Shown: positions 14,125-28,213, counted from the stretch's first letter. The stretch is 28,213 nucleotides of DNA from a virus (IMGVR_UViG_3300025131_007473:1-28213), one strand, 5' to 3'. Program-made: numbers and translations. The notes: generated by a model not told the origin, from the letters alone.

Positions 14125-14131
14125 GTTTAAA

Positions 14132-14137
14132 TCCTCT
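14132..14137 (-). promoter_or_regulatory. Ribosome binding site of ligase gene
   Basis: AGAGGA on the minus strand, 7 bases before the ATG at 14124; it fixes the start of the ligase. Confidence 0.85.
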
Positions 14138-14146
14138 ATTAAATAT

Positions 14147-14175
14147 ATAATAGCATAATTGAAAGGAAATGTCCA
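14147..14175 (-). promoter_or_regulatory. Sigma70-like promoter for ligase
   Basis: Minus-strand -35 TGGACA (14170-14175, five of six consensus bases), 17-base spacer and -10 TATTAT (14147-14152, five of six). It lies between the radical SAM stop at 14184 and the ligase ATG, predicting a leader of roughly 16 bases. Confidence 0.75.
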
Positions 14176-14183
14176 AACATTTT

Positions 14184-15875
14184 TTAACAGAGATTCTTCT
14201 TTTTAAACTCAACTTTATTAATTTCTATAAATCGTTTATAATAATTTTCTACATTTTTTCTACTTAAATTTACTACATAGTTTTTAAATTCTTTTTTTCG
14301 TTCATGGTTTAGATTTATTAATTTTTTACCAGTTAAAAATTTAGTTTTCATAAAAGCTACACTTTCTTTATGTTCTAAACCAAGATCTCTTATTCTGGCA
14401 TATTCTCCGTGAGCACTTCCTCCAAACCTAGTAAAAGAATGATTTTTAAAGGCTTTTTTCCATTTTTCTTGAATTACAAAACATTCGTCTAGATTCATAG
14501 TGTCATGTTCCCAATAAAATTTTGGAGTGAATTCTAATTTTGTAAATCCAAATTTCTCAGGATATCGAGAATGATCTGAAAAGTCTACTACCCCCGAAAG
14601 TTCTTCAATAAAAGGGCCAACATCTAAAATAGATGTTTGTATTTCATCAATAATTTTTTGTTGTAATAACCATTCTAACGAATTATCTAAACTTTCTTTT
14701 GTTTCTTTAGGTAATCCAATAATAAAATATGCCGTTGTCCATATTTCATTTCCGCCTTTATTTTTTAAAATCTGTAAAAGTTCTTTTACTCTTTCAGGAT
14801 CTAATCCTTTTCCTGCAAATTTACCTGCTTCGTGACATAGAGTCTCAATACCATAAAAACCAGCTCTATATCCTGATCCTAACATTTCATCCATTAAATC
14901 CATATATTTATGAAAAGGATCAATTCTAACATAACTTGCCCATTCAATTTTAAATGGTAGTTTTGCTACCATTTCTGCCCATTCACCTACCCATTTACGA
15001 TTATCATTAAAACAATCAGAAGTTAAATTGTATCCTTGTATGCCAAAATCATTATAATTTTTTATAAGTTCTTCTTTTAATGAGTTAATACATCTTTTAG
15101 AAGAATATCTTGTTTCATAATAACAATATTTACAATTAAAACCACATCCTCTACTTACTTCTAATGGTGCCCAATTATGTGGTAAAAAACAATCTTCTTT
15201 TGTAAAAAAATTATGAGGAACTTTTTTATTGTCAGATTTCCACTCATCTCGATCACAAAGAATAAAATTAATTCCATTTCTAGTTATTGAAGGAATTATA
15301 TTTTCTTCATTTTTTATTTTATTTATTAATGCAATAATTGCATTATCAGCCATTCCACACAATACATAATCACAATAATCTTTAATAGCATAATTATCAG
15401 GAGCTATATGACTCATTTGTAATATTCTTGTAGTTCTAGCTCCTCCAAGTATAATTTTAGCTTTAGGATTATATTTGTCTAAAATTAGACGAAGATTACT
15501 AAACCACTCTCTTAATTTTTCATTAGTATATTCCCATAAAAATAAAGAGTAAGCTGCAGTAGTTAATTTATCAATTTTAGTTATTGTCGATTGGTTTGAA
15601 AAACCACTAGCATCAGAAAGTTTTTTATTTTGAAAAGATGGATATAAAAAAGTAGTAGAAATACCAACACATAATGTATTTTCATCAATTAATTTTTCAA
15701 AATAACTAAAAAATTTTTTATTATCTTCTAGAAATCTAAACCAATCAAGTACTATTGTTTTATATCCGGCATTAATTAATTGAGATTTTAGAACATAAGT
15801 TCCTGCATATCTTGCAGCATAAGTTTCTTTTGTTTGATTTGAGATATCACTTAAAAAAATGACTTCATTGCTCAT
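14184..15875 (-). CDS. Radical SAM protein with N-terminal B12-binding-like domain
   Basis: A 563-residue radical SAM enzyme, which uses a [4Fe-4S] cluster and S-adenosylmethionine to generate a radical. Residues about 1-200 have the alternating strand/helix layout of the B12-binding-like domain common in this superfamily (EVIFLSD, KTIVLDWFRFLED, CVGISTTF, KAKIILGGARTTRIL, YCDYVLCGMADNAIIALI), but no DxHxxG cobalt-binding motif is visible. The cluster motif is SRGCGFNCKYCYY, with Cys244, Cys248 and Cys251. Later segments match the radical SAM barrel (YNLTSDCFNDNRKWVGEWAEM, IEWASYVRIDP, GYRAGFYGIETL, WTTAYFIIGLPKET). It overlaps the DUF3310 gene as ATGA. The substrate is unknown; methylation, tailoring of a sugar or a modified nucleoside are all possible. 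Confidence 0.9.
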   Translation of the reverse strand: MSNEVIFLSDISNQTKETYAARYAGTYVLKSQLINAGYKTIVLDWFRFLEDNKKFFSYFEKLIDENTLCVGISTTFLYPSFQNKKLSDASGFSNQSTITKIDKLTTAAYSLFLWEYTNEKLREWFSNLRLILDKYNPKAKIILGGARTTRILQMSHIAPDNYAIKDYCDYVLCGMADNAIIALINKIKNEENIIPSITRNGINFILCDRDEWKSDNKKVPHNFFTKEDCFLPHNWAPLEVSRGCGFNCKYCYYETRYSSKRCINSLKEELIKNYNDFGIQGYNLTSDCFNDNRKWVGEWAEMVAKLPFKIEWASYVRIDPFHKYMDLMDEMLGSGYRAGFYGIETLCHEAGKFAGKGLDPERVKELLQILKNKGGNEIWTTAYFIIGLPKETKESLDNSLEWLLQQKIIDEIQTSILDVGPFIEELSGVVDFSDHSRYPEKFGFTKLEFTPKFYWEHDTMNLDECFVIQEKWKKAFKNHSFTRFGGSAHGEYARIRDLGLEHKESVAFMKTKFLTGKKLINLNHERKKEFKNYVVNLSRKNVENYYKRFIEINKVEFKKKNLC

Positions 15876-16411
15876 TCATCAAGTTCTTTAATCAGATCTT
15901 TTAAATACCATAGTGCTTTTTGTAAATCTTCTAATTGTGATTTTTTATTTGTATGTTTTACGTTATAACGAGTAGTATATTTAATGACATTTCCTTGTGC
16001 ATAAGACATATCCCAAGATTTAATATATTTAATAGTTTCGATTCCTTTATTGTAATGAGGAGGATGATTAACCATATCAGGTTTTACTAATTCTCTTTCA
16101 GAAACAGGAGCACCAGATAATCTTTTATATATTGTTTTTCCTTTATCTGGTGACTCATATATAGGTTTACCCCATAATTCTGCAGGGACATCTTCTCTAG
16201 CAGGATACACCTTACCTTCTCTTTCTTCTCTCATTTTACGAACTACATATTGATCCCAACTTTCATTTGGTTGTCTATCCGATTTTTGTTTTTGCTCTCT
16301 AGTAGGTTCTGCAAAATCTTGTTTTGCAATAGAATTTTTACGAACTACATATTGATCCCAACTTTCATTTGATTGTCTATCTGATGGATCAGTACTTAGA
16401 TTATTACTCAT
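15872..16411 (-). CDS. DUF3310 domain protein with N-terminal repeat
   Basis: A 179-residue protein. The C-terminal third (VNHPPHYNKGIETIKYIKSW, then NVIKYTTRYNVKHTNKKSQL, EDLQKALWYLKDLIKEL) is the DUF3310 domain widespread in phages and related to the T7 gp1.7-like nucleotide kinase, so a role in nucleotide metabolism is possible. The N-terminus carries two copies of DRQxNESWDQYVVRK at residues 11-25 and 45-59, produced by a 50-base direct repeat. The repeats are hydrophilic and probably unstructured. A GGAGGG ribosome site lies just before the ATG at 16411, and the stop overlaps the next ATG. Confidence 0.88.
   Translation of the reverse strand: MSNNLSTDPSDRQSNESWDQYVVRKNSIAKQDFAEPTREQKQKSDRQPNESWDQYVVRKMREEREGKVYPAREDVPAELWGKPIYESPDKGKTIYKRLSGAPVSERELVKPDMVNHPPHYNKGIETIKYIKSWDMSYAQGNVIKYTTRYNVKHTNKKSQLEDLQKALWYLKDLIKELDE
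16234..16283. repeat. 50-base direct repeat, copy 1
   Basis: Matches 16336-16385, 102 bases away, with two differences. It encodes DRQPNESWDQYVVRK in the DUF3310 protein. Confidence 0.93.
16336..16385. repeat. 50-base direct repeat, copy 2
   Basis: Partner of 16234-16283, encoding DRQSNESWDQYVVRK. The 102-base offset keeps the frame. Confidence 0.93.
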
Positions 16412-16716
16412 TAAACCCTCCGTTTAATTGCATCTAGTAATTTTGATAAATTTTCTTTTTTATTTAGATTAGTACCTTCAATAGTAATATTAAGAATTTC
16501 TTCTAATTCTCTAAGCATAACTTTTACAGTTAAACCTTTATCTTCACCACCTATTTCTGGTTTTTCATATATTTTTAATTGTACAAGTTTACTTATAACA
16601 CTACGATACCCTTTTTCGAAGTGTTTGGCAAGTTCATGTACATCTTTTTTGGATGAAACAGTATATAATGATATTAATTCATTTTCCTGTTCATCACTCC
16701 AAGCTTTAACTGTCAT
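16411..16716 (-). CDS. Small Myb/SANT-like DNA-binding protein
   Basis: A 101-residue protein whose first 50 residues (WSDEQENELISLYTVSSKKD, VHELAKHFEKGYRSVISKLV) match the three-helix Myb/SANT pattern: an aromatic W at the start of helix 1, then an acidic E/D-rich helix, then LAKHF...RSVISKL as the recognition helix. The same EIA/LAK...RSV..KL pattern appears in the four-unit protein at 11569-12249, so the two may be distant relatives. The C-terminal half is helical and charged. A GGAG ribosome site precedes the ATG at 16716. It overlaps the PC4-like gene upstream and abuts DUF3310 downstream. DNA binding is inferred. Confidence 0.7.
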   Translation of the reverse strand: MTVKAWSDEQENELISLYTVSSKKDVHELAKHFEKGYRSVISKLVQLKIYEKPEIGGEDKGLTVKVMLRELEEILNITIEGTNLNKKENLSKLLDAIKRRV

Positions 16717-16984
16717 TTATTTCTCCAAAATTAAATTCTAATTGAGCAGAGTATTTAAATCTTTTACTTACTATTTCAGCAGCATTTTCTAATAAAGGTA
16801 ATAAAGAACATACCTCATCTGCAGGTAAGGCTAATCCACTTTTTGTCGGGAACCATTGTCCCGTATCACCATCCATAGCATATTCTCTTATATGCAAATA
16901 TAAATTTTCTCTAAATTCATTGACAGTAACTTTAACGGCATTTCCATTATTTTTATGAAATGCCGTTCCAAAGTCGATATCCAT
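16706..16984 (-). CDS. PC4-like single-stranded DNA-binding protein
   Basis: A 92-residue protein whose residues about 17-65 match the PC4/p15 transcriptional-coactivator fold: VTVNEFRENLYLHIREY then GQWFPTKSGLALPADEV. The pattern of an F-R..LYLHIREY strand, a WFPTKSGLAL hairpin and a following helix is typical. PC4-like domains bind ssDNA as dimers; in phages they are thought to act in replication, recombination or transcription. The tail is acidic. It sits among small DNA-associated genes with overlaps on both sides. An alternative is another Whirly-like ssDNA binder, but the PTK-G-L motif favours PC4. Confidence 0.82.
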   Translation of the reverse strand: MDIDFGTAFHKNNGNAVKVTVNEFRENLYLHIREYAMDGDTGQWFPTKSGLALPADEVCSLLPLLENAAEIVSKRFKYSAQLEFNFGEINDS

Positions 16985-17190
16985 TATTTAATTTCTACAG
17001 ATTTATCCGTTTCAGTAACAACCATCGTTGTTTTTTTCTTTGCTTTAGGAACAGCTCGTTTTGACTTAACTTTTTCCCATGTTGCAAGATGATCACTTGC
17101 AGCACTACCTGAAATACCATTAATTTTTAGGTAATTTTCAAGTTCTGCTTTATTTTTAAACAATGCTAATTTATCATTACTTATTTTCAT
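16984..17190 (-). CDS. Small basic protein, 68 aa
   Basis: Unrecognised. The N-terminal half is helical and ends in HLATWEKVKSKRA, followed by a Lys-rich stretch PKAKKKTT and an acidic tail. The layout (helical half, then a W-E-K-x-K motif and a basic tail) resembles the neighbouring 60-residue protein at 17187-17369. Start and stop overlap neighbouring genes by 4 and 1 bases. The basic tail suggests nucleic-acid contact; nothing more can be said. Confidence 0.6.
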   Translation of the reverse strand: MKISNDKLALFKNKAELENYLKINGISGSAASDHLATWEKVKSKRAVPKAKKKTTMVVTETDKSVEIK

Positions 17191-17369
17191 CGCTTAAACA
17201 TACTCCTTTTCTTTTTTGGTTGAACTTTAGCTTTTTGAGGGATCTTTTTGATTTTTTCCCACCTATGAATATATTCATCAGCTAAATGAGTCATATTTTT
17301 TGCCTGTAATTCTACTAATAAAAGTGGAATTGTATCTATTTTCTTAAGTTCATTATCATGTATTTCCAT
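17187..17369 (-). CDS. Small basic protein, 60 aa
   Basis: Unrecognised. It has a helical half followed by YIHRWEKIKKIPQKAKVQPK and a KKKR end, matching the layout of the next gene (ATWEKVK plus Lys-rich tail). The stop overlaps the next ATG as ATGA. The two may be a diverged tandem duplication of a small nucleic-acid-binding protein. Confidence 0.6.
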   Translation of the reverse strand: MEIHDNELKKIDTIPLLLVELQAKNMTHLADEYIHRWEKIKKIPQKAKVQPKKKRSMFKR

Positions 17370-18711
17370 GTAAATACTCCTTTAAAGTACCGCCTTCTAC
17401 TGGACGATTTAAATAATCTTTACCCATAATATATATATTTTTATTTTTATCTTCTATTTGGGATAACCATTTATTATAGCAACTTTGCGCGCCTTGTAAA
17501 CCTCTCAAATAATGAGCATTAACAGTATGAAAGGCATTACTCCACCAAATTACTTCTGTTTTACTATTAGTGATTATAGAAGTTAATTTGCTTGGATCTT
17601 CACAAATATCACAATAAATATAATGATGTTTTAATTTTTTATATTTGTCCCAATGATTTTTTAAATTTTCTTCAGAACCCCATCTTGCGATCTCTTGTTT
17701 CCATAAAAATTCATAAGTCTCATTTTCTGTTTGTCTGCCTACTGTTTCATTTATTTGATATTTACTTTTGGCCCATTTTAAAAATTCAGGGTAATTAGTA
17801 CCATCCCAATGAGTTAAAAGTAATTTTTTAAAAGCTAACGCTGACTTACTATAATCATAAAAAATAATTTCTGTATCTTCATTAAAATCAAAATAATTTA
17901 AAATAAAATTAGGTTTAAATGCAGCTGCTACAGAATATAATTTATCAATTGGTTTATCTAATTTAATATATTTTAATTCTTTATATGCTTCTGTATTCCA
18001 AAAAAATACACAAGTAGGTGCATAACTTATAATATTATTAATCCAAGAAAGTTGTCGTTGTAATTCTACAGCACTTTTATTAGGATATACATATTGTTTT
18101 TGTTCTCTAATTTTAGGATGAAAATTATAAACTGTTAATCCATTTGCTAAACTTGTATTAATAAAATTCCACCCATCTACTAAAGGAGTACATGATACTG
18201 TTTCTTCAGTTGGTTTTAAAGATAATGGAGTATAATCATCATGAATATCATGAACATGTCTTTTTGCATTTGCTAAAATAGTTTTTTCGTTATTTTTTAT
18301 ACCATAAACAGGTTTATCAAATTTTTTATAATAATCTAAATTAACTAATAAACATTGTTTATGTAATCCATAATATCCTTTTCCTTCTGGATGAGCAGTA
18401 TTAGGATTTTGTTTATCCATTATATGCCCTGTTATAAAAAAAGTATGAGTTTCCATCCATTTTTCAAGTAGCTCAAAAAATTGAGCTTCTTTTATTAAAT
18501 GGCCTATACATTGAACAATACAATATTTAACATTTTCTTTTAATGCTTTATCAAGTATTCCATTTACAGATGTACCTGTTAAAATTTTTCCAAAATATTT
18601 AAATCGAGTAAAAAATTCTGTTAATTCTTTAGATTTTTGTGCGGCGGTTGCATTAGGAATAACAGCAGAATCATTTAAAATACCAACAATATAATTTTTA
18701 TTTATTCCCAT
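17356..18711 (-). CDS. Large hypothetical protein, 451 aa
   Basis: Unrecognised. The start is set at the ATG at 18711 (MGINKNYIVG), which has a GAG-type ribosome site; the longer reading uses a TTG at 18732. An N-terminal part to about residue 140 has strand-helix alternation (NYIVGILNDS, YCIVQCIGHLIKEAQFFELL, FFITGHIMDK, GLHKQCLLVNLDYYKKFDKP), reminiscent of nucleotide-sugar transferases that handle a donor and report YGxxKQCLLVNLDYY. The C-terminal half (CVFFWNTEAYKEL, EIIFYDYSKSALAFKKLLL, VIWWSNAFHTVNAHYL) looks like a second alpha/beta domain. There is no signal peptide or membrane segment. Because it sits next to glycan-related genes, a glycosyltransferase-like role is a guess. Confidence 0.7.
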   Translation of the reverse strand: MGINKNYIVGILNDSAVIPNATAAQKSKELTEFFTRFKYFGKILTGTSVNGILDKALKENVKYCIVQCIGHLIKEAQFFELLEKWMETHTFFITGHIMDKQNPNTAHPEGKGYYGLHKQCLLVNLDYYKKFDKPVYGIKNNEKTILANAKRHVHDIHDDYTPLSLKPTEETVSCTPLVDGWNFINTSLANGLTVYNFHPKIREQKQYVYPNKSAVELQRQLSWINNIISYAPTCVFFWNTEAYKELKYIKLDKPIDKLYSVAAAFKPNFILNYFDFNEDTEIIFYDYSKSALAFKKLLLTHWDGTNYPEFLKWAKSKYQINETVGRQTENETYEFLWKQEIARWGSEENLKNHWDKYKKLKHHYIYCDICEDPSKLTSIITNSKTEVIWWSNAFHTVNAHYLRGLQGAQSCYNKWLSQIEDKNKNIYIMGKDYLNRPVEGGTLKEYLHGNT

Positions 18712-19336
18712 TTTTCTCGTAGCTATCTTCAATTAATTGTTTCCATTTTTTATTAGTCTGATAATTTCCATGAATTATTATATGATAACGACCTTCATTA
18801 CTTTTGTTATAATATGCATGTGTATTTCCTACATCTAATATAAATGCTGTTCCCTCCTTAAAAGGAACTGTTCCATGATACGCCATTTTCATAATACAAT
18901 TTTTTGGATGGTTAAGGGCTATATTTACTGGAGATAATTTATGTTCATTCATATCAGTATGTGGGACTATAAAACCTCCTGGCTCTAATAACATAAATCT
19001 TACTCTATAATAAATATTACATGGGTATATATTTTTTAAAAAATTATATGTATAGGGACACTGAGATGCTATATCTGTCCATTTATACGGAGTTTCTTTA
19101 TTTGATTTATACCCATAAGATGTATAATGATTAGTACTAGATTCAGATATTCCATGAAGGCATAAACTAGCCCATCCTTTATGTTTATATCCAGCAATTT
19201 GATCTTCTGCTCTATGAGGTACAAACTCATTTTTTAAATCTTGTGCTTCTTTTAACATTTCTTGATATGGAAATTCAATATCCAGCTTTAGCCAAGGAAG
19301 TTTACTTTCATTAATAATCCAGTTAAAAGTTGCCAT
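18698..19336 (-). CDS. Asp/Asn hydroxylase-like 2OG-Fe(II) dioxygenase
   Basis: A 212-residue protein starting at the ATG at 19336, one base after the stop of the Fe-S carrier gene; a longer reading from 19393 would overlap that gene by 56 bases. The core has RVRFMLLEPGGFIVPHTDMN with His126 and Asp128, then GTAFILDVGNTHAYYNKS with His173 and GRYHIIIHG with Arg183. This HxD ... H ... R set matches the aspartyl/asparaginyl beta-hydroxylase family (PF05118-like), which hydroxylates Asp or Asn side chains with Fe(II) and 2-oxoglutarate. The substrate could be a protein or a metabolite. The gene follows directly on an Fe-S carrier and precedes the large unknown protein with a 14-base overlap. Confidence 0.85.
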   Translation of the reverse strand: MATFNWIINESKLPWLKLDIEFPYQEMLKEAQDLKNEFVPHRAEDQIAGYKHKGWASLCLHGISESSTNHYTSYGYKSNKETPYKWTDIASQCPYTYNFLKNIYPCNIYYRVRFMLLEPGGFIVPHTDMNEHKLSPVNIALNHPKNCIMKMAYHGTVPFKEGTAFILDVGNTHAYYNKSNEGRYHIIIHGNYQTNKKWKQLIEDSYEKNGNK

Positions 19337-19337
19337 T

Positions 19338-19763
19338 TCATAAATCCAAATCAAAACTAAAGCTAGTTCCACATCCACAACTTTGTTTTGCACCAGGGTT
19401 CTCTACTATTAATGATTTTCCAAATCCTTGATCGCTAACATCAATAGTTGAGCCGTAAAGATATTTAAGACTTGTTGTATCAATAACTGCTTTTGGTGAT
19501 TCACAAAACGTCACATCATCTTTTGTTAGTTCTGTATCTTCATCCATTAAATAATTAAAACCGGAACAACCACCGCCTGATACTCCGAAACGAAAGAATG
19601 AATCTTGTTTTTCAAAATTAGTTTCAATAAATATTTTTGCTTTATTTGTAAGTGTAGGTAATTCTCCTTTTACTTCTTTATTTATTTCCGGTGCATGAAA
19701 ATGAAAATCTCTCAGAATCTTATCCTCAAGAGAATCTTTGTACCCCTTTACTATCTGTGACAT
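19338..19763 (-). CDS. iscA: A-type Fe-S cluster carrier (HesB/IscA/ErpA-like)
   Basis: A 141-residue protein with the A-type carrier signature: GVSGGGCSGFNY (Cys66) and QSCGCG (Cys129, Cys131), the three Cys that bind the cluster. The core from about residue 36 is a normal-length IscA domain; the first 35 residues are an extension not typical of bacterial IscA. The reading begins at an ATG with the strongest ribosome site seen here (AGGAGG, 9 bases away), overlapping the GT4 gene by 38 bases. Phage-encoded IscA/HesB proteins are known from marine phages; here it may help build clusters for the radical SAM enzyme or host enzymes. The symbol reflects family, not proven orthology. Confidence 0.93.
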   Translation of the reverse strand: MSQIVKGYKDSLEDKILRDFHFHAPEINKEVKGELPTLTNKAKIFIETNFEKQDSFFRFGVSGGGCSGFNYLMDEDTELTKDDVTFCESPKAVIDTTSLKYLYGSTIDVSDQGFGKSLIVENPGAKQSCGCGTSFSFDLDL

Positions 19764-20886
19764 TTTTAATTACCTCCTCATATTGATATGCAACGTTATT
19801 CCATGTATTTTCTAATTTAATATGTTTAATTTCTTTAATAATTTTATCTTTTTCATGGTGATGATATATATTTTGCATTTGACTTTTTAAACTTTCTGTT
19901 ACTGGTTCATTGACAAATGTATGAGAACTCATTAATGTAGTCGCATCTCCAGGTTTAAGAGCGAAATATTCTGAATTTGAAATATCTATCATTTGTTTAT
20001 TAACTGCTATACGAAGTCCTGCATCTTCTGGAATAAATTCTGTATGAGGACCTATAGCAGGTAAAATTGGAAAACATCCACAGGCAACAGCTTCTTGAAT
20101 ATGCATCCCAAATCCTTCTGCGCGATATGGATGAATTATAAATTTGCAATTTTTATAGATACTTGCCATTTCTTTTTCAGACAAATTATCATCTATATAA
20201 ATAATATCAGCACATCCTGTTTTATATTGCATTTTTACAATTTCATTAAGTAGATTATTCATACCATAAACAGAAGGATTATCTTTAATAATTATAGCAC
20301 AATTATCATATTTAGCAAATGCATCATTCCAAGCATTTAATAAAATATCTACTCCTTTGCGCCATTGTCCATTGCCGACGAAAACAAAATTATATTTTTT
20401 AGGATTAACACCAGGAAATGGTTCTACTGATTCATTATTAAAAATATTTTCATCGTATCCATTTGGAATGGTATTTATTTTATCAGGATTCATTCCACCT
20501 GTTATAAAAATTTGTTTCTCATAGTTAGAAGGGACGCATAGTGCATCTGCAAAATTTTCAAAACGATATTGCCATTCAAAAGGAACTTTAGAAAATTCCC
20601 AGGGTTGTATATAAATTATTTTTGTTTCTTTATTTTCAGGCCAATTCCATATAGGAGGATAGCTATGTCGTAATTGAATATGTATATTGTTAATTTCATT
20701 TAGTGCTATTTTTTCTAATTTTTTAATAGTATTTACGTTAAGATTAAAATCTGTATTAATACTATCAAGTGGTGTAATACATAAATTAATATCTTTACTT
20801 TTATTTAATTTTAAAGCAAGATTTCTATTAATAATTGATAATGAATGATTATCAAAAAATTTTCCTAATATTTCTACGTTTATCAT
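19726..20886 (-). CDS. GT4-family glycosyltransferase
   Basis: A 386-residue retaining glycosyltransferase with GT-B fold. The donor-binding half has NFVFVGNGQWRKGVDILL, then CKFIIHPYRAEGFGMHIQEA (E-x7-E with Glu257 and Glu265), the hallmark of family 4, followed by GCFPILPAIGPHTEF. The N-terminal acceptor half has YIQPWEFSKVPFEW and ALCVPSNYEKQIF. No signal peptide or membrane segment is visible, so it probably acts in the cytoplasm on nucleotide sugars. It overlaps the start of the Fe-S carrier gene and abuts the GT2-like gene upstream. It is one of about six transferase-like genes in the window. The acceptor is unknown. Confidence 0.92.
   Translation of the reverse strand: MINVEILGKFFDNHSLSIINRNLALKLNKSKDINLCITPLDSINTDFNLNVNTIKKLEKIALNEINNIHIQLRHSYPPIWNWPENKETKIIYIQPWEFSKVPFEWQYRFENFADALCVPSNYEKQIFITGGMNPDKINTIPNGYDENIFNNESVEPFPGVNPKKYNFVFVGNGQWRKGVDILLNAWNDAFAKYDNCAIIIKDNPSVYGMNNLLNEIVKMQYKTGCADIIYIDDNLSEKEMASIYKNCKFIIHPYRAEGFGMHIQEAVACGCFPILPAIGPHTEFIPEDAGLRIAVNKQMIDISNSEYFALKPGDATTLMSSHTFVNEPVTESLKSQMQNIYHHHEKDKIIKEIKHIKLENTWNNVAYQYEEVIKNVTDSKGVQRFS
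19773..19778 (-). promoter_or_regulatory. Strong ribosome binding site of Fe-S carrier gene
   Basis: AGGAGG on the minus strand about 9 bases before the ATG at 19763, inside the end of the GT4 gene. It supports independent, high translation of the carrier. Confidence 0.75.
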
Positions 20887-21716
20887 TAATATGCCCTATC
20901 ACAAAATTGTTCATAATAACTAAATAATTCATCTGTTTTTACTTCATAAAGACGAGGCCATTGAGCCTCGCCTAAGCCAGATGATTTAAAATTTCTTAAT
21001 TCTTCAAAGTTATCTAAAGTAACCTGATTCCATAATGTATAAAAAGGATCTTCTTCAGCTATATTAGAATGCCCAATATTATGAATTTTTTGATGTAATG
21101 GTTCTTTATCTCTACATAAACTATAATGTATTGTTACTAATGGACTTAATAACCTATTAAGTCCTGCATGACTTTTATCTGTCCAACGAGCGTAAACAAA
21201 AGTACTATCTTTTGTTGTTATGAATCCTTGATTTTCTCCGAAAAAAGGAGTAAAATCATCATTTGCAATTACTAATGTTTTATCTTCTATTTCTTTATAT
21301 GGAGTACCCCAAGTCATACAAACATCATATTTATAAAGATATCTTTCTATAATAGGAAGATAATTATAAAAAAATGTTTTATGATTTAATAAAATTTCAT
21401 CTGCGTCAATACTTATAATAAGATCATTTTCACAATGTTCTTTAAGAAAATTTCTTTCATAATTATCATTTTCAATAGGAATATCACTTTTATGAAAATC
21501 ATCTTCTATAATAGATATCTTATTATCACCATCTATTTTTTGAAGTTCTTTCCATAATTTATCTTCATCAAATTTAAAAGAATTTTTACTCCAACTTATA
21601 CGATCTTTATCTACTCCTAAAATAATTTCATCAACATAGTCATAATATTGGTTTATACTTTTAGAAAGATATTCAGCATCATAACTAATTAATCCAATTA
21701 CACTTTTTTTAATCAT
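20886..21716 (-). CDS. GT2-like glycosyltransferase
   Basis: A 276-residue protein starting at the ATG at 21716 (MIKKSVIGLISYDAEYLSKS), which overlaps the methyltransferase gene by 8 bases; an ATG at 21746 is the longer alternative and has no ribosome site. The N-terminal strand-helix and the IISIDADEILL motif (Asp104, Asp106) match GT-A family 2 enzymes and GT2-like proteins that act on sugars via a metal-bound DxD. The C-terminal half holds WTDKSHAGLNRLLSPLVTIHY. A TAATG junction joins it to the GT4 gene. The sugar and acceptor are unknown. Confidence 0.78.
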   Translation of the reverse strand: MIKKSVIGLISYDAEYLSKSINQYYDYVDEIILGVDKDRISWSKNSFKFDEDKLWKELQKIDGDNKISIIEDDFHKSDIPIENDNYERNFLKEHCENDLIISIDADEILLNHKTFFYNYLPIIERYLYKYDVCMTWGTPYKEIEDKTLVIANDDFTPFFGENQGFITTKDSTFVYARWTDKSHAGLNRLLSPLVTIHYSLCRDKEPLHQKIHNIGHSNIAEEDPFYTLWNQVTLDNFEELRNFKSSGLGEAQWPRLYEVKTDELFSYYEQFCDRAY

Positions 21717-22419
21717 TTTGTGCAAAAGCCTTTTTTCTAAATCCATATATAGCTAACCCGCTATAATATGCAAATGCATCTGCATTTCCACTTGAAATTC
21801 GTTGTTTTTTAAATTCTGTTACTAACCTATCAGAATATTGTTCAATCTTTTGTTCTAATAATTTTGAAGATTCTTCACTTGAGTATCCAGAAAATAAAAC
21901 TACACATTGCCGACTCATAGCATGAAATACTTTTGTAAAGAAATGATCATATACTTCTTCTGTAATAGGTTCAATATCACAATAAATAATATCAAATTTA
22001 GGTTGTGAAGACCAAGATACATCTCCAAATGATGCTTCAATAATTTTAAGATGATTACTTTTAATATTTTCTATAATTTCATATTTTTGAAGTATATCAT
22101 ATAATCCAGATTTAACATTAGGCCATCCACTATCATCTGGTGCAACCTTTTTTGGTTCTCTAAAATCATATGAAAAATTATCTACACCTACTGCACTTGT
22201 TTTAGCATTACCATAAAGAGCACCAACAAGAGTACTTCCTCTATAAGTTCCAAGTTCTAGATAACGAGTTCCATCTTTATTACATAAATTATTTAATAGG
22301 CATTTAATTTTTATAGATGATTGTCCAAATAGTTGTCTCTCCACATCTGATAATTTTGATTTTTCAGCATCAGATAATTTAAGACAAGCATCTACAAATT
22401 GTTCAGTCAGTCTCGGCAT
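21709..22419 (-). CDS. Class I SAM-dependent methyltransferase-like protein
   Basis: A 236-residue protein with a Rossmann-type methyltransferase core: TRYLELGTYRGSTLVGALYG at residues 51-70 is motif I, and VGVDNFSY, IIEASFGDVSW and FDIIYCDIEPITEEVYDHFF are the following strands with the acidic residue. This resembles the Methyltransf_24 type. A strong AAGGAG ribosome site lies 8 bases before the ATG. It sits between a small membrane protein and a GT2-like gene in the sugar module, so sugar O-methylation is plausible but inferred. Confidence 0.8.
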   Translation of the reverse strand: MPRLTEQFVDACLKLSDAEKSKLSDVERQLFGQSSIKIKCLLNNLCNKDGTRYLELGTYRGSTLVGALYGNAKTSAVGVDNFSYDFREPKKVAPDDSGWPNVKSGLYDILQKYEIIENIKSNHLKIIEASFGDVSWSSQPKFDIIYCDIEPITEEVYDHFFTKVFHAMSRQCVVLFSGYSSEESSKLLEQKIEQYSDRLVTEFKKQRISSGNADAFAYYSGLAIYGFRKKAFAQND

Positions 22420-22645
22420 TATTTTTTCTCCTTATAAATAATTGATCAATGTAATAAAAAGGAATTCCGCATAATAAAATAAATAAACTTATTAAAAGAC
22501 ATCCAAATATAAAAGGGACTAAAGTTATAAACCAAATTATTATAAAACAACTTGTAAATAATCCTACATTATTAGGTTTTTTGCTAATTGTGCTATTGAT
22601 CATATTTTCTAAATTTTCTTTTGTAACATATACTTTATCAGTCAT
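22403..22645 (-). CDS. Small membrane protein, 80 aa
   Basis: Two hydrophobic segments with a short break (residues about 30-70: LFTSCFIIIWFITLVPFIF, GCLLISLFILLCGIPFYYI) followed by a positively charged QLFIRRKN end, consistent with two membrane helices. The start at 22645 (MTDKVYVTKEN) has a nearby GAG-type ribosome site and an 8-base overlap with the gene upstream; the alternative is 22660. It lies inside the glycan module, so membrane anchoring or transport for that pathway is possible. No family was recognised. Confidence 0.7.
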   Translation of the reverse strand: MTDKVYVTKENLENMINSTISKKPNNVGLFTSCFIIIWFITLVPFIFGCLLISLFILLCGIPFYYIDQLFIRRKNNAETD

Positions 22646-23396
22646 TAATTTTCTCGTCAAGAGTTTTATAAAGGTCAGAATCTTTCCATATATTTTTAAG
22701 AGTTTCTAAATTTCTCATTTCTGCTTTGAGTTTATTTTGATCGCCTGCTCTTATTCTTTTATTATCTCGACTTTCATGATGTATAAGTTTTACAGGAATT
22801 TGATAAATTTTAAATCCTGCTTCTCTCGCCTGTAAACAATAATCAACATCTCGATTATATGTCCATTCAAAATTCGGGCGAAAATTTCCTAATTTTTTAA
22901 GTACTTCTCGTCGTATATATACACCACCAAAAGTAGTCCATGCAACTTCTCTAACACAATCAAATTGTCCTTCATCAATTACTAATTGTTCTTTAAACTT
23001 TGCATGAGTATCCATACATAAACCACTGCCAATATGATCAGGATTATTATCTGTAAATTTACCACCGGCACTTTGAACGTAATGGTTTCCATTAGGTTTA
23101 TCAGTAGCAGGATACAATAAAAGACACCCAAATAAACCAGCTTCTGGATATTTATCTACATAATTTAAAAGGTCATTAAACCATTTATGATTTTTATCTT
23201 CTGCTGTAGGAAATATATCTGCATGTAAAATAAAAATATCATCATTAGGGAATTGATTCCACATTTTTTGATACATCATATCTGATCCAATTCCTGCAGA
23301 ATCTTTTTTAAATACAATTGGAAGTTGCCAATATAAAGATTTATGTTTGATAATTTCATTATCATCTATATATGGACAAATTATTTTTACACTCAT
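22638..23396 (-). CDS. GT2-like glycosyltransferase, rhamnosyltransferase type
   Basis: A 252-residue protein with GT-A motifs: FILHADIFP near residue 57 (a DxD-like site), then TTFGGVYIRREVLKKLGNF and YNRDVDYCLQAREAGFKIYQ with LIHHES, the typical C-terminal signature of family 2 transferases. The ATG overlaps the stop of the upstream small gene. It probably transfers a sugar from a nucleotide donor onto a glycan. The acceptor is unknown. Confidence 0.85.
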   Translation of the reverse strand: MSVKIICPYIDDNEIIKHKSLYWQLPIVFKKDSAGIGSDMMYQKMWNQFPNDDIFILHADIFPTAEDKNHKWFNDLLNYVDKYPEAGLFGCLLLYPATDKPNGNHYVQSAGGKFTDNNPDHIGSGLCMDTHAKFKEQLVIDEGQFDCVREVAWTTFGGVYIRREVLKKLGNFRPNFEWTYNRDVDYCLQAREAGFKIYQIPVKLIHHESRDNKRIRAGDQNKLKAEMRNLETLKNIWKDSDLYKTLDEKIND

Positions 23397-23557
23397 ATCG
23401 AATCTTTTTCCTTTATTTTTGCTAATCGTTCTTTTAGTACAGATATTGTAGTATTATATCTACCCCCATCTGTTTGCATTAATTTATATATTTCTTCAAA
23501 ATGCCTTATTTCTTGTTCTAAAATTTTTACTGTCCATATTACTAATGAATTACTCAT
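23393..23557 (-). CDS. Small coiled-coil-like protein, 54 aa
   Basis: Unrecognised. I use the ATG at 23557, which overlaps the stop of the epimerase gene as ATGA and has a GGAG ribosome site 9 bases upstream; the ATG at 23575 is the longer alternative. The sequence is almost entirely charged helix with heptad-like leucines (VKILEQEIRHFEEIYKLM, ISVLKERLAKIKEK), suggesting a coiled coil. It is followed directly by a GT2-like gene. Confidence 0.6.
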   Translation of the reverse strand: MSNSLVIWTVKILEQEIRHFEEIYKLMQTDGGRYNTTISVLKERLAKIKEKDSI

Positions 23558-24573
23558 ATTAATTTCTCCGTCCATGTTTTAGGAGTATTTTCTTTTATAA
23601 ATTCAAGATCTAAATGATACTCAAACTTTTTCCCCTTTTCTCCTCCATGTTTTTTAATCCATTTAATCATTTGTTTAATAGTATCATCAAGACCTATTTG
23701 TATATTATAATTAAATTCAGTCATAATTTTATTACTAGAACAATAAGCATTTTTTACTTCTGCAGGACGATCTGGATAAAATTCAAATTGAGGATATTTT
23801 TCACAAAAATGACCAACTTTTCCTGCTAAATCTTTTATAGTAATTTCATTATTATCTGGTCCTATATTATATACTTGTCCACAAATATTTCTATGAGACT
23901 TTATCATGGTACTTACTGCTCGTATACAATCTCCAACATTACTAAAACTTCTTTTTTGTTGTCCATCTCCATATATTACTATTGGTTTTCCTTGTAAACA
24001 TCTATTAATCATAATTCCTAGAACATTTCTAAAAGGATCATAGTATCTTTGTCCAACTCCTATTACATTATGTGGAACTAAGGTTACATAGTTTAGTCCA
24101 TGTAATTTATTTAACAATGCTAAATGTTCTTCTGCTTGTACCTTAGCTAAACCATATGGATCTTCTGGAGCTGTTGGCATATCTTCTGTAAATGGTGGAA
24201 TTTGAGCACCATATCTAGCCATTGAACTACAATTAATAAGTAGCCGTACATTATTATGTAAACAAGCACTAGCTACACTTACTGTACCAGATACAATACT
24301 TTCTACTGTAATTTTTGGACTAAAAACGCTAAGTCCCTCATAAGGAAGTGCTGCAGTATGAAATACCGCATCTGCTTTTCCCATAATATTTTTTAGCTCA
24401 TTATAGTTTAATATATCAATATTATATAATTCTATATTATCAGGCACATTTGACTCTATACCACCAATAAAGGTATCACAACCAGCTATATCATATTCAC
24501 CTTGCATTTGTAAATGACCAGCTAAAGTACTTCCTAAAAGACCTCCAATACCGGTAATAAAAATTCTACTCAC
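23554..24573 (-). CDS. NAD-dependent sugar epimerase/dehydratase (SDR)
   Basis: A 339-residue extended SDR enzyme acting on nucleotide sugars. The Rossmann motif is TGIGGLLG at residues 7-14; FHTAALP follows, with INCSSMARYG (Ser116/Ser117) and DPYGLAKVQAEE (Tyr140, Lys144) as catalytic residues. The pattern matches UDP-glucose 4-epimerase-like and GDP/dTDP-sugar enzymes; the exact reaction cannot be set. The start is not ATG: GTG at 24573 overlaps the upstream stop as GTGA, and TTG at 24576 is the alternative; an AAGGA ribosome site precedes both. With the RmlB-like and aminotransferase genes upstream it forms a sugar-nucleotide set. Confidence 0.9.
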   Translation of the reverse strand: MSRIFITGIGGLLGSTLAGHLQMQGEYDIAGCDTFIGGIESNVPDNIELYNIDILNYNELKNIMGKADAVFHTAALPYEGLSVFSPKITVESIVSGTVSVASACLHNNVRLLINCSSMARYGAQIPPFTEDMPTAPEDPYGLAKVQAEEHLALLNKLHGLNYVTLVPHNVIGVGQRYYDPFRNVLGIMINRCLQGKPIVIYGDGQQKRSFSNVGDCIRAVSTMIKSHRNICGQVYNIGPDNNEITIKDLAGKVGHFCEKYPQFEFYPDRPAEVKNAYCSSNKIMTEFNYNIQIGLDDTIKQMIKWIKKHGGEKGKKFEYHLDLEFIKENTPKTWTEKLI

Positions 24574-25550
24574 CAAGTAAATTCCTTTTTATAGAAATCT
24601 ACAATATCTCTAATTGAATTATTAAATATTTTTTCAGGTTGCCATCCATATTGTATAAGATGATGACAATTAATAGCATATCGTATATCTTGTCCAAGTC
24701 TTTTTGTAGTTAAATCTAAGTATTTTTCATAATCAGGAACATTAACACTAGATTTTCCCATAAAATAACAATTAATAATTTTTTGAACAGTTTGTAAATT
24801 AGTTTGTTCAAATCCAGATGATATATTATAGATTTTATTTCTATCTGCTTTTTCTAATAAAATCATTACTGCATTAATTGTATCTTCTACATGGGTCCAA
24901 GTTCTAATAGGTTTTCCTCTATTATGTAGTTTTATTAATTTATTACGTTGTAATTTTCTAACAGTAACTGGAATAAGTTTTTCTGGATATTGGTATATTC
25001 CATAATTATTAGAAGGTCTAACAATTAAATATTCTAAACCATGAGTTCTAGCCCATGATTTTATTAATAAATCAGCTGCTGCTTTAGTTGCTGCATATGG
25101 ATTACTAGGATTAAGTGGATCTTCTTCATTAAAATATCCATTTTCTATATCTCCATAAACTTCATCTGTTGAAAATTGATAAAATAATGGTTTATCAGCA
25201 CTACTTAAAGTACATTGTATAAGTTCTAGTAAATTTCTTACACCATCAATATTGGAAGACACAAAATTTTGAGATTTTTTAAAACTATTTTCTACATGAC
25301 TTTCGGCAGCTAAATTAAATATAACATCACATTCAGGAATCCACTCTATGGTAGTTATATTATCATTAAAAAATTTAAATTGATTTGGATAATTTTCTTG
25401 AAAATATAATAGCTGGTTATTATTAGATACATAATTAAATTTATCAATTCCGTACACAAACCATCCTTCTTTTAAAAGCCTATAAGTAAGATGGTTACCT
25501 ATAAATCCCCAATTTCCTGTTATAATAGCTGTTTTATGTTTTTGTTGCAT
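24570..25550 (-). CDS. rfbB: dTDP-glucose 4,6-dehydratase-like enzyme
   Basis: A 326-residue SDR enzyme. Residues 11-18 give TGNWGFIG, then DKFNY, FNLAAESHVENSF (81-87), QFSTDEVYGD with Thr128-Asp129-Glu130 and SNPYAATKAAAD with Tyr152 and Lys156. The Thr-Asp-Glu trio plus YxxxK is characteristic of dTDP-glucose 4,6-dehydratase, which makes the 4-keto-6-deoxy intermediate. A GDP-mannose or CDP-glucose 4,6-dehydratase is the main alternative. It overlaps the aminotransferase by 17 bases. No RmlA-type nucleotidyltransferase is in the window, so the activated sugar is likely taken from the host or encoded elsewhere. Confidence 0.88.
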   Translation of the reverse strand: MQQKHKTAIITGNWGFIGNHLTYRLLKEGWFVYGIDKFNYVSNNNQLLYFQENYPNQFKFFNDNITTIEWIPECDVIFNLAAESHVENSFKKSQNFVSSNIDGVRNLLELIQCTLSSADKPLFYQFSTDEVYGDIENGYFNEEDPLNPSNPYAATKAAADLLIKSWARTHGLEYLIVRPSNNYGIYQYPEKLIPVTVRKLQRNKLIKLHNRGKPIRTWTHVEDTINAVMILLEKADRNKIYNISSGFEQTNLQTVQKIINCYFMGKSSVNVPDYEKYLDLTTKRLGQDIRYAINCHHLIQYGWQPEKIFNNSIRDIVDFYKKEFTW

Positions 25551-26553
25551 TTAATTTCTCGTGTATTGGATAACAAAGTATTCTTTCATAAACATAATTA
25601 CTAATAGGATACGCAGGGTCTTTATACCTTAAAGGTTTATAGTATTTTCTACATATTCTATCTTTATAATATGCTTGTTCTAATGAAGAAGGTTCTTTAT
25701 GAATCCAAGGCATTAACATAGGAAACCATTTATCATCAGAATGATTAGGAAGTGTTTGCCCCTCTAAATTAGTAGTTAAATCATATTTTAATTGATAATA
25801 ATTATTTTGATAATTTTCTATCATTTCTTCAAAATTAATTTGATCCCACCATTGTAAAATACCTGCTGCATTTAATTCACTTATCTTATAGTTACCACTT
25901 CTCTCATTAAATGCACCATCAGTAAAACCAAAATTTATAGCGTTTCTACATTCTTTTTCATATTTTTTATCTACTATTATTAAACCACCTTCACCAAATC
26001 CTAAAGGTTTAGTGTGATGAAGTGAAATAATAGATCCGATACCTAAATTACAACTATTAGTATTATTATAAAAACTATAAGGTGATGCTGCATTATCAAA
26101 TATAAGAATTTTTTCTTCTTTTTCACATTGTTCTATTAAATAATTTAAATCTTGTAAATGTCCAAAACAATTAGTAGCAATTACTATATTACCATAACTT
26201 TGTAAATATTCATCATTTATTTGTATATTTAAATTTTGATCAAAATCTACTACTATTGGACCACCACACGGTCCTAAAGAAGCAGAAGGAAAATTAAAAT
26301 CTTGTGTTGTAACTCTAAAATCTTTTTGATGAAAATGTCTGATACCAAAAACTAATGCATGAAGCGCTCCTGTTCCACTACAAGTAGCAATAACAGCTCT
26401 ATCATCAGCTATTTCTAATAAAGTACGCGCTCTTTCTTCTAAAAGTCTAACAGCTTTACCATAATTACTCCATTGATTTGTTTGTTGAGCATTACCTAAA
26501 TATGATTTAAGTTTAGTATAATCAAATGTTTTATTTTGTATAAAAGGTATCAT
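25534..26553 (-). CDS. DegT/DnrJ/EryC1/StrS aminotransferase
   Basis: A 339-residue PLP enzyme that usually installs an amino group on a keto sugar. The family pattern is visible: CSGTGALHALVFG at 58-70 (PLP phosphate contact), ATNCFGHLQDLNYLIEQC, IFDNAASPYSF (Asp153) and SLHHTKPLGFGEGG with the PLP Lys182. Placed directly upstream of the 4,6-dehydratase, it would act on the 4-keto-6-deoxy (or 3-keto) product to give an amino sugar. The ATG at 26553 follows the stop of the previous gene with no gap. Activity on a specific sugar is inferred. Confidence 0.92.
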   Translation of the reverse strand: MIPFIQNKTFDYTKLKSYLGNAQQTNQWSNYGKAVRLLEERARTLLEIADDRAVIATCSGTGALHALVFGIRHFHQKDFRVTTQDFNFPSASLGPCGGPIVVDFDQNLNIQINDEYLQSYGNIVIATNCFGHLQDLNYLIEQCEKEEKILIFDNAASPYSFYNNTNSCNLGIGSIISLHHTKPLGFGEGGLIIVDKKYEKECRNAINFGFTDGAFNERSGNYKISELNAAGILQWWDQINFEEMIENYQNNYYQLKYDLTTNLEGQTLPNHSDDKWFPMLMPWIHKEPSSLEQAYYKDRICRKYYKPLRYKDPAYPISNYVYERILCYPIHEKLNATKT

Positions 26554-27207
26554 TTATTTTTTATTATTTTCCAATGTAGAATGATGTTTTACTGCTTGTT
26601 TTATTTCTTCAACACTTCTCTTTGCAAGTACTACTAAACCATTACACATATTTTCAATTTTAAGTACAGTCCATTCAGAATTTTCTTCTAAAAATTCATT
26701 AATAGCAGGAACTATAAGTTTTCCTAATTCTGTTGTATCGTGAAACATTAAATATCTACTTGCTTTATTACCATGTAATTTTAATTCTTGAGAAAGTTGT
26801 TCATATGTATGATCTGTATCAAAAAATATAGTATGACATGGGTCAAGTTCTATTTCTAATGTATTTGCTTTTTTAAATGAAAAATTAACATCATTTTCTT
26901 GAGCAATATCGTATACTTCTTCTATATTTCCTCCATACTCAGAAGGATCATTAATATCATAAGATATTAAAGTTTTAACTGATGTTATACTAAGTTTTTT
27001 ATAGTCTATATGATCTATTAATCTAGAATTTGATATAGCTAATCCATATAACAACGCCCATGTAGACACAATTCCTCTAACTCCTAACTCAACAACACTA
27101 TCAGAATTTTTTGCTGTTGCTGCTAGGGTATTAAAATGATACCACATATCACTTTTTTCATCTTGTGCGTGATAATCAAATTTTTCTTGTAATCTATTAC
27201 TAGGCAT
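26554..27207 (-). CDS. SAM-dependent O-methyltransferase-like protein
   Basis: A 217-residue class I methyltransferase-like protein. Motif I is SVVELGVRGIVSTWALLYG at about 37-55; the later FFDTDHTYEQLSQELKLHG (Asp130, Asp132, His133) and YLMFHDTTE match the DHTYE and HDT signature of cephalosporin hydroxylase/Methyltransf_24 relatives, where the acidic residues bind the metal. A strong GGAAGGAG ribosome site precedes the ATG at 27207. It sits between a putative transferase and an aminotransferase, fitting sugar tailoring. The substrate is inferred. Confidence 0.78.
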   Translation of the reverse strand: MPSNRLQEKFDYHAQDEKSDMWYHFNTLAATAKNSDSVVELGVRGIVSTWALLYGLAISNSRLIDHIDYKKLSITSVKTLISYDINDPSEYGGNIEEVYDIAQENDVNFSFKKANTLEIELDPCHTIFFDTDHTYEQLSQELKLHGNKASRYLMFHDTTELGKLIVPAINEFLEENSEWTVLKIENMCNGLVVLAKRSVEEIKQAVKHHSTLENNKK

Positions 27208-27970
27208 TTATAACTCCTTCCCAATTTATATAAGGACTTAAAAAAGGTTCAATACAGTGAGTAGCAATACTAGGAAGAGCAGATATGAAATGTCTATTTT
27301 TTTCTTTTAACTTAATAAATTTATTATAATCTCCTAAGTTTTCTATATGTATATTTAAATCTTCAAATAATACTTGTCCTTTAACAGCAAAAGTTCCACA
27401 AATACTTGGAACTGTTCTCCAATGACAATATCTACCTAATATAATCTGTGACATTAATCCTTTGTATCTTGGACTATATTTATCAGGATGATCATATAAA
27501 CATATATAATGTAAATCATTATATATAGAAAATATATCTTCTATTATTATAGGCCAATTAGCTAAATGTAAATAATCATCTTCGATGATATATATAATAT
27601 TATGAGTATTTAAATTACTATAAATATAATCCCACATTAATGCGCCTGATGCTTTTTCTAGATCAGGTTTTTCCATTCTTTTTCTATACACATTTCCATT
27701 CTCATCATGATCATCATAATATTCATTTTTTTCTTCCCATTCTAACTCAAGAGTAGGTAATAAACTTTGAGAATTAATCTCGACAAGTTTACAATTTTCT
27801 GGGAGTGATTTAAAATAGTCATCTACTACTGGTCCATCATGTAAAATAGTAATTGGATTATCTTGCCGAGTATTTAAAAGGTTATTCCAAGACTTTTCGA
27901 AACTAAACCAATGTGGTCTATTATCTTTTTCATTTCGATGTGATGTTGTTCTATAATAAATATCTATCAT
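27200..27970 (-). CDS. Putative glycosyltransferase
   Basis: A 256-residue protein with alpha/beta alternation and an IIYIIEDDYLH motif (Asp131, Asp132) in the position of a GT-A DxD site, followed by HYICLYDHPDKYSP and VPSICGTFAVKGQV. The N-terminus (IDIYYRTTSHR, NPITILHDGPV) resembles family 2-like phage and viral transferases. No membrane segment or signal peptide is seen. Its start overlaps the PhyH-like gene as ATGA and its stop overlaps the methyltransferase start. The role is inferred from fold and neighbours; no precise family was recognised. Confidence 0.7.
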   Translation of the reverse strand: MIDIYYRTTSHRNEKDNRPHWFSFEKSWNNLLNTRQDNPITILHDGPVVDDYFKSLPENCKLVEINSQSLLPTLELEWEEKNEYYDDHDENGNVYRKRMEKPDLEKASGALMWDYIYSNLNTHNIIYIIEDDYLHLANWPIIIEDIFSIYNDLHYICLYDHPDKYSPRYKGLMSQIILGRYCHWRTVPSICGTFAVKGQVLFEDLNIHIENLGDYNKFIKLKEKNRHFISALPSIATHCIEPFLSPYINWEGVINA

Positions 27971-28213
27971 AATTTAATTGGTTTATAAATATAAGGATGC
28001 GGATAATTCCGATCAATAAAATCTTTATCTTTCATATTATTAAATCTATAATGGCATGACCATCTAGTTCTATCTGATTTAAGTTCTCCACTTTTATGTA
28101 TTAATAAAGGATTAAAAAATAAAACATCACCTGGATCAATACTAACTGCTTCATACTCGTAATTACCATCTACATATCCAAAACCATCTTCTATATCTTT
28201 TGCTATATCACCT
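27967..28213 (-). CDS. PhyH-like 2OG-Fe(II) dioxygenase (N-terminus beyond window)
   Basis: The last 81 codons of a gene that runs off the right edge; the stop overlaps the next ATG as ATGA. The visible part reads IDPGDVLFFNPLLIHKSGEL, then SDRTRWSCHYRF, the C-terminal signature of phytanoyl-CoA dioxygenase-like enzymes: the His of LLIHKS is the distal iron ligand, and the Arg in the DRTRW stretch is expected to hold 2-oxoglutarate. The HxD pair should be in the missing N-terminal part. This would be the third Fe(II)/2OG oxygenase in the window. Its substrate is unknown; proximity to the sugar genes suggests sugar or lipid tailoring. Confidence 0.85.
   Translation of the reverse strand, partial: GDIAKDIEDGFGYVDGNYEYEAVSIDPGDVLFFNPLLIHKSGELKSDRTRWSCHYRFNNMKDKDFIDRNYPHPYIYKPIKL

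What the first reader, a model, noticed from the sequence alone, without database searches (positions are those of the whole stretch)
14184..28213. Concentration of iron-dependent enzymes with a phage Fe-S carrier
The window codes for an IscA/HesB-type carrier (with the best ribosome site seen), a radical SAM enzyme, an Asp/Asn-hydroxylase-like oxygenase and a PhyH-like oxygenase here, plus another 2OG oxygenase at 4272-5060. The carrier may supply the radical SAM cluster, tying infection to iron supply, which is scarce in the ocean (inference).
Basis: partly seen in the sequence, partly recalled or inferred. Interest (0 to 1): 0.65.

Follow-up and report, generated by a model that had tools for sequence, protein, structure and literature searches.

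The report
Phage iron-sulfur carrier in glycan island
An uncultured, probably ocean-dwelling relative of phage T5 carries a gene for an iron-sulfur cluster carrier that every sampled relative keeps, locked to an iron oxygenase and a sugar-modifying protein, while radical SAM enzymes that could use its clusters come and go nearby; phage iron-sulfur genes are already known, but this fixed gene block was not found described.

Summary
The genes are real. The window (a whole IMG/VR record from an uncultured T5-like phage, 28 kb) encodes an A-type Fe-S carrier with all three ligand cysteines, a radical SAM protein with CxxxCxxC, an Asp/Asn-hydroxylase-like oxygenase (AspH), a PhyH-like oxygenase cut by the contig end, and another 2OG oxygenase. 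The carrier has the strongest Shine-Dalgarno site of 33 genes scored. By its own test, co-occurrence holds: 7 of 10 contigs of at least 20 kb with this radical SAM family also have an IscA, against 1 of 50 control viral contigs. But iscA is core while this radical SAM is rare (2 of 50 iscA contigs). Unrelated radical SAM genes sit beside ligA in relatives, and radical SAM density in iscA contigs is about three times the control. The fixed partner is a coupled block GT1-iscA-AspH-P458: iscA lies directly upstream of AspH-P458 in 64 of 64 testable contigs. Two close relatives carry a SufU gene exactly between iscA and AspH. Best reading: a functional A-type carrier serving phage-encoded Fe-S enzymes in a glycan-biosynthesis region; the client is unproven. 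Phage A-type carriers with radical SAM genes were published in 2017, so this is a new variant.

The parts
19338..19763 (-). iscA: A-type Fe-S carrier, 141 aa, ErpA/IscA-like core (residues ~37-136) with a ~36-aa N-terminal extension; ligand Cys 66, 129, 131
   Evidence: PF01521, TIGR00049 over cut-off, HI1723/IscA/SufA in PDB; three Cys invariant in 69/69 distinct relatives; L12, D19, F20, H21, P25 of the extension at least 95% conserved; median dN/dS 0.077
19772..19778 (-). Shine-Dalgarno AGGAGGT of iscA, inside the 3' end of GT1
   Evidence: strongest of 33 window genes; position read
18698..19336 (-). AspH: Asp/Asn beta-hydroxylase-like 2OG-Fe(II) oxygenase, 212 aa from ATG 19336
   Evidence: PF05118 E 3.2e-14; H145, D147, H192, R202 (numbering from GTG 19393) at least 95% conserved; Cys 112 and 166 in 67/67; stop-start coupled to iscA
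17356..18711 (-). P458: 451 aa from ATG 18711; N-terminal part possibly glycosyltransferase-like, C-terminal part with a class I methyltransferase-like fold; four invariant Cys
   Evidence: no Pfam, PHROG or NCBIfam match; AF2 pLDDT 65.6, residues ~90-221 poor; methyltransferase fold Z 9.4 over 225-445; Cys 64, 120, 174, 234 in 83/83
19726..20886 (-). GT1: GT4-type glycosyltransferase, 3' end overlaps iscA
   Evidence: PF00534 E 3e-14; upstream of iscA in 48/48 testable contigs from the P458 scan
14184..15875 (-). Radical SAM protein, 563 aa; N-terminal Rossmann-like domain plus radical SAM core; class B (cobalamin-type) fold without DxHxxG
   Evidence: PF04055; AF2 pLDDT 83.7; MgmA, AprD4, OxsB, TsrM at Z 18.4-18.8; motif scan
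15872..16411 (-). DUF3310 protein; with ligA it bounds the site that holds the radical SAM gene here and other genes in relatives
   Evidence: PF11753; maps
12394..14124 (-). NAD-dependent DNA ligase, the other boundary
   Evidence: PF01653/PF03120
16411..16716 (-). T5 D5-like transcription regulator (lineage marker)
   Evidence: phrog_323 E 2e-9
2021..4300 (-). family A DNA polymerase, about 42% identical to T5 polymerase (lineage marker)
4272..5060 (-). 2OG-Fe(II) oxygenase, phrog_81
   Evidence: PF13759, phrog_81; 57% identical homologue beside primase and polA in L024
27967..28212 (-). PhyH-like 2OG oxygenase, C-terminal fragment
   Evidence: PF05721; complete in sibling contig L011:1087-1797
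20886..27970 (-). glycan/nucleotide-sugar genes: a GT2-like protein, a sugar epimerase/dehydratase, an RmlB-like dTDP-glucose 4,6-dehydratase, a DegT-type aminotransferase and proteins without family

Best explanation
iscA is a core gene of an uncultured T5-like phage lineage and encodes a working A-type Fe-S carrier. It is translated from a strong ribosome site. It takes clusters from the host's assembly machinery, or in some relatives from a phage-encoded SufU/IscU, and passes them to phage-encoded Fe-S enzymes. The best candidate clients are the phage's radical SAM enzymes, which vary from genome to genome (here a class B-type radical SAM protein). These act, with the AspH and PhyH oxygenases, in making or modifying a glycan or another small product of the island. 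Shown: gene identities, ligand conservation, purifying selection, the fixed iscA-AspH-P458 order, SufU insertion in two relatives, radical SAM enrichment. Inferred: cluster transfer, clients, the glycan product.
For: Three ligand Cys in 69/69; median dN/dS 0.05-0.08 for iscA, AspH, P458 and radical SAM. iscA directly upstream of AspH-P458 in 64/64 contigs picked by P458, not by iscA; iscA and AspH overlap by 1 or 4 nt in 41 of the distinct cases. SufU (TIGR01994, 154 bits against a cut-off of 92.5) sits exactly between iscA and AspH in L015 and L016; another relative (G010) has an IscU elsewhere, and all 8 large-phage records with a divergent IscA that were tested also carry an IscU. Radical SAM density 3.2 times control; IscA in 7/10 radical SAM contigs against 1/50. 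Different radical SAM genes flank ligA in L013, L117 and L139.
Against: Most iscA contigs show no radical SAM gene, though many are short: none in 16 of 27 contigs of at least 20 kb. This radical SAM family is in only 2 of 50 iscA contigs. The control is not matched by lineage or habitat. A fixed gene order in one lineage can reflect common descent. No transfer data exist. In the second viral IscA group, IscA occurs without AspH or P458 nearby (0/64).
Confidence: 0.5

Rival explanations
1. The carrier serves host Fe-S proteins: it keeps host respiration or biosynthesis running during infection, and the phage radical SAM genes are incidental passengers.
For: iscA is universal in the sampled lineage while radical SAM genes are patchy; 16 of 27 iscA contigs of at least 20 kb show no radical SAM gene. 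Phage-encoded SufU and IscU would serve host proteins equally well.
Against: Strict coupling to two phage-specific genes (64/64) and the conserved N-terminal extension point to a phage partner; radical SAM enrichment.
Confidence: 0.25
2. The true partner is the coupled block: IscA loads iron or a cluster into AspH or P458. P458 (four invariant Cys) may itself hold a cluster, or IscA may deliver Fe(II) to the mononuclear-iron site of AspH.
For: iscA-AspH-P458 adjacency in 64/64, overlaps of 1-4 nt, P458 Cys 64/120/174/234 in 83/83 and AspH Cys 112/166 in 67/67. The extended IscA goes with AspH-P458, the short IscA without them.
Against: P458's confident domain looks like a class I methyltransferase, which needs no cluster; its Cys-bearing middle region is poorly modelled. 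About a third of P458 columns are invariant anyway. 2OG oxygenases take up Fe(II) without a carrier (established knowledge).
Confidence: 0.2
3. No functional link: iron enzymes are simply common in marine phages, and the gene order is inherited by descent.
For: 2OG oxygenases, AspH and radical SAM cassettes are reported from marine phages such as pelagimyophages (PMC7029224). All relatives belong to one syntenic lineage.
Against: Low dN/dS, conserved coupling across 50-80% protein identity, SufU inserted precisely beside iscA, radical SAM enrichment.
Confidence: 0.15

Closest known systems
A-type Fe-S carriers (ErpA, IscA, SufA; PF01521, TIGR00049)
   Same: Core region and C...C-x-C ligand set; closest solved relative is ErpA-like HI1723
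   Different: About 36-aa conserved N-terminal extension; below the ErpA, IscA and SufA equivalog cut-offs
Marine environmental viral genomes with A-type carrier and/or IscU plus radical SAM genes (Nishimura et al. 2017, PMC5332604)
   Same: Viral carrier genes together with viral radical SAM genes, and the same proposed role
   Different: The notable cases there are T4-like; here a T5-like lineage with iscA fixed in a GT1-iscA-AspH-P458 block, and SufU rather than IscU beside it in two relatives
Pelagimyophages (Zaragoza-Solas et al. 2020, PMC7029224)
   Same: AspH-type hydroxylase as a core gene and radical SAM cassettes in a variable region
   Different: Different phage group; no 'iron' or 'Fe-S' term found in the main text of that paper
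Class B radical SAM enzymes (TsrM, OxsB, MgmA, PhpK) and AprD4
   Same: N-terminal Rossmann-like domain plus radical SAM core over nearly the full length, Z 18.4-18.8; PhpK model 67 bits
   Different: No DxHxxG, far below family cut-offs; best cellular relatives found are at most 33% identical over part of the protein
Phage T5
   Same: Family A polymerase about 42% identical over 90% of its length; D5-like regulator
   Different: AspH, P458 and this radical SAM have no match, and iscA only weak ones under 45% identity, in the phage record collection

Membership tests
A-type Fe-S carrier (TIGR00049 / PF01521) | Curated score cut-off for the subfamily | tested here: met
   TIGR00049 79.9 bits against 58.8; PF01521 35.4 against 26.3
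A-type Fe-S carrier (TIGR00049 / PF01521) | Three cysteine ligands, C...C-x-C | tested here: met
   Cys 66, 129, 131 in 69/69 distinct sequences
A-type Fe-S carrier (TIGR00049 / PF01521) | Binds and transfers an Fe-S cluster | not testable with these tools
   needs protein work
ErpA, IscA or SufA equivalog | Score over the equivalog cut-off | tested here: not met
   ErpA 77.9/117, SufA 60.5/136, IscA 57.7/151 bits
Radical SAM superfamily | CxxxCxxC motif and radical SAM domain | tested here: met
   CGFNCKYC, PF04055 51 bits against 29.5; Cys in 15/15
Cobalamin-dependent (class B) radical SAM | N-terminal cobalamin-type Rossmann domain with full-length fold match | tested here: inconclusive
   TsrM, OxsB, MgmA at Z 18.2-18.8 over nearly the whole chain, but AprD4 and MiaB/RimO score in the same range
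Cobalamin-dependent (class B) radical SAM | DxHxxG cobalamin ligand motif (not universal: absent in TsrM, from memory) | tested here: not met
   no DxHxxG in any of 15 members
Cobalamin-dependent (class B) radical SAM | Binds cobalamin | not testable with these tools
   needs protein work
Asp/Asn beta-hydroxylase (PF05118) | Pfam cut-off and conserved His/Asp/His/Arg | tested here: met
   53.5 bits against 22.6; H145, D147, H192, R202 conserved
SufU (neighbour gene in L015, L016) | TIGR01994 equivalog cut-off | tested here: met
   154.3 and 153.5 bits against 92.5
T5-like phages | T5-type replication and regulation genes | tested here: met
   polymerase and D5-like regulator; structural genes were not examined

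The most novel reading that the evidence does not exclude
The extended phage IscA is a dedicated maturation factor: its conserved N-terminal extension docks onto the coupled AspH-P458 pair, making the block a phage-specific metal-loading unit that yields an unknown hydroxylated and methylated glycan or similar product, with radical SAM modules swapped in to vary that product.
Probability: 0.12. Interest if true: 0.75.

Novelty: new variant of a known kind. Interest (0 to 1): 0.45.

Why it matters
Why phages carry single Fe-S assembly genes is an open question. A lineage in which the carrier is fixed, coupled to two phage-specific genes, joined in some members by a SufU, and surrounded by changing radical SAM genes gives named candidate clients to test. 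If the carrier feeds phage radical SAM enzymes, infection would place a defined demand on host iron and sulfur; if it feeds host proteins, that also becomes testable.

Tried and rejected
A first map and the PF01521 scan suggested that radical SAM and iscA exclude each other; this was wrong, because PF01521 missed iscA in G007, G013 and G014 and the two genes lie far apart in G007 and G008. 'G010 lacks radical SAM' was also wrong: it carries another subfamily right after ligA. The P458 genome scan found no cellular relative; PDB profile searches with P458 and AspH found nothing. A 21-base control pattern was too rare; a 15-base pattern gave the control set. The strong iscA ribosome site is shared by close relatives, but AGGAGG lies within 20 nt of the called start in only 10 of 74 distinct iscA (starts are uncertain in the divergent ones), so it was not shown to be a lineage-wide feature. 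Marine origin rests on literature parallels, not on sample metadata, which I did not see. In the VIA list no glycosyltransferase was reported for P458's N-terminal half; this part was barely tested, and the GT suggestion rests on weak viral-library hits.

Full report
WHAT IS THERE. The window is a complete IMG/VR record of 28213 bases, linear, probably a genome fragment. Nearly all large genes lie on the minus strand. Polymerase (about 42% identical to T5 polymerase over 90% of its length), a D5-like regulator, NAD-dependent ligase, primase and DnaB-like helicase mark a T5-like phage. No record in the phage collection matches the first 25 kb at DNA level, and AspH, P458 and the radical SAM protein have no match there even as proteins. 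Two corrections: AspH most likely starts at ATG 19336, and PhyH is a fragment whose complete gene is in a sibling contig.

THE CARRIER. The IscA core resembles ErpA (HI1723) most closely but falls below all equivalog cut-offs. Its three ligand cysteines are invariant in 69 distinct relatives, and an N-terminal extension outside the Pfam domain has conserved L12, D19, F20, H21 and P25. Its Shine-Dalgarno site is the strongest of 33 genes. Median dN/dS is 0.077. The gene is therefore kept for function.

CO-OCCURRENCE TEST. A scan of viral contigs found 378 places encoding an iscA relative (best 80 kept) and only 17 encoding this radical SAM family. Of the 10 radical SAM contigs of at least 20 kb, 7 carry an IscA, against 1 of 50 control viral contigs (P 2e-6). 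Some of the seven are near copies of each other, and three have a divergent IscA, so independent cases are fewer. In the other direction, 2 of 50 iscA contigs match this radical SAM profile, one of them marginally. Looking for any radical SAM domain changes the picture: 11 of 27 iscA contigs of at least 20 kb carry at least one, against 6 of 38 controls (P 0.04); for 30-65 kb it is 7 of 13 against 3 of 26 (P 0.008); matches per Mb are 17.8 against 5.5 (P 0.006). The control contigs were picked by a 15-base pattern and are not matched by lineage or habitat.

A VARIABLE SITE. In the window the radical SAM gene lies between DUF3310 and ligA. In L117 an unrelated radical SAM gene (NrdG2/MoaA-like) holds that place; in L030 a gene without radical SAM motif does; in L012, L013, L027 and L028 a third kind, and in L139 and its overlapping locus L088 a 38-40% relative of the window's gene, follow ligA directly. 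In G007 and G008 the relative lies upstream of the glycan genes. In G008 and L039 a 730-aa radical SAM protein follows P458.

THE FIXED PARTNERS. Contigs were selected by P458, independently of iscA. In 64 of 64 with at least 600 bases upstream of AspH, iscA lies immediately upstream; GT1 is present in 48 of 48 testable. iscA and AspH overlap by 4 nt in 22 and by 1 nt in 19 of the distinct cases; AspH and P458 overlap by 11-23 nt in most. In two close relatives a SufU gene, over its equivalog cut-off, sits exactly between iscA and AspH. A second viral IscA group lacks both the extension and AspH/P458 nearby (0 of 64); in the 8 records tested an IscU is present. P458 has four Cys invariant in 83 sequences; its C-terminal half has a class I methyltransferase-like fold (Z 9.4) and its N-terminal half weakly resembles glycosyltransferases. 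With the RmlB-like dehydratase, DegT aminotransferase and further GT genes, a glycan or nucleotide-sugar role is likely.

THE RADICAL SAM PROTEIN. A good model (pLDDT 83.7) matches MgmA, AprD4, OxsB and TsrM over nearly its full length (Z 18.4-18.8, tied). It has the cluster motif but no DxHxxG. The sequence family models nearest to it are PhpK and other B12-type proteins, all far below cut-off. Its substrate is unknown.

JUDGEMENT. Observation confirmed. The general idea is published (PMC5332604); the fixed block, SufU insertion and phage-specific radical SAM family are the new parts as far as the held papers show. The iron-scarcity argument remains an untested inference.

Noticed in passing
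L015:3223-3672 and L016:10413-10847: Phage-encoded SufU (sulfur transfer/scaffold protein) inserted exactly between iscA and AspH.
   Followed up: yes
window 12394-15875; L117:3230-4114, L013:14503-15426, L139:18109-19755: The flanks of ligA act as a variable site that has taken up radical SAM genes of at least three different subfamilies.
   Followed up: partly
L019:1220-3409 and L039:8004-10193: A 730-aa protein with a C-terminal radical SAM domain and an FkbM-like stretch lies directly after P458 (FkbM resemblance is my reading of the sequence, not tested).
   Followed up: no
window 5927-8761: 944-aa protein with FecR-like and RTX calcium-binding repeats within the replication genes, in a stretch with much higher G+C (0.41 at 6001-8000 against about 0.27 in neighbouring stretches).
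   Followed up: no
L170-L233: A second viral IscA group (about 108 aa, no extension), often in large phages; an IscU was found in all 8 such records tested, next to iscA in G019 and G020.
   Followed up: partly
L026:2829-3503: WbqC-like protein beyond the window's end in the sibling contig, extending the glycan gene region.
   Followed up: no
L066:9255-9467, L075:10411-10632, L126:9014-9214: A small conserved ORF (about 67-74 aa) lies between iscA and AspH in some relatives.
   Followed up: no
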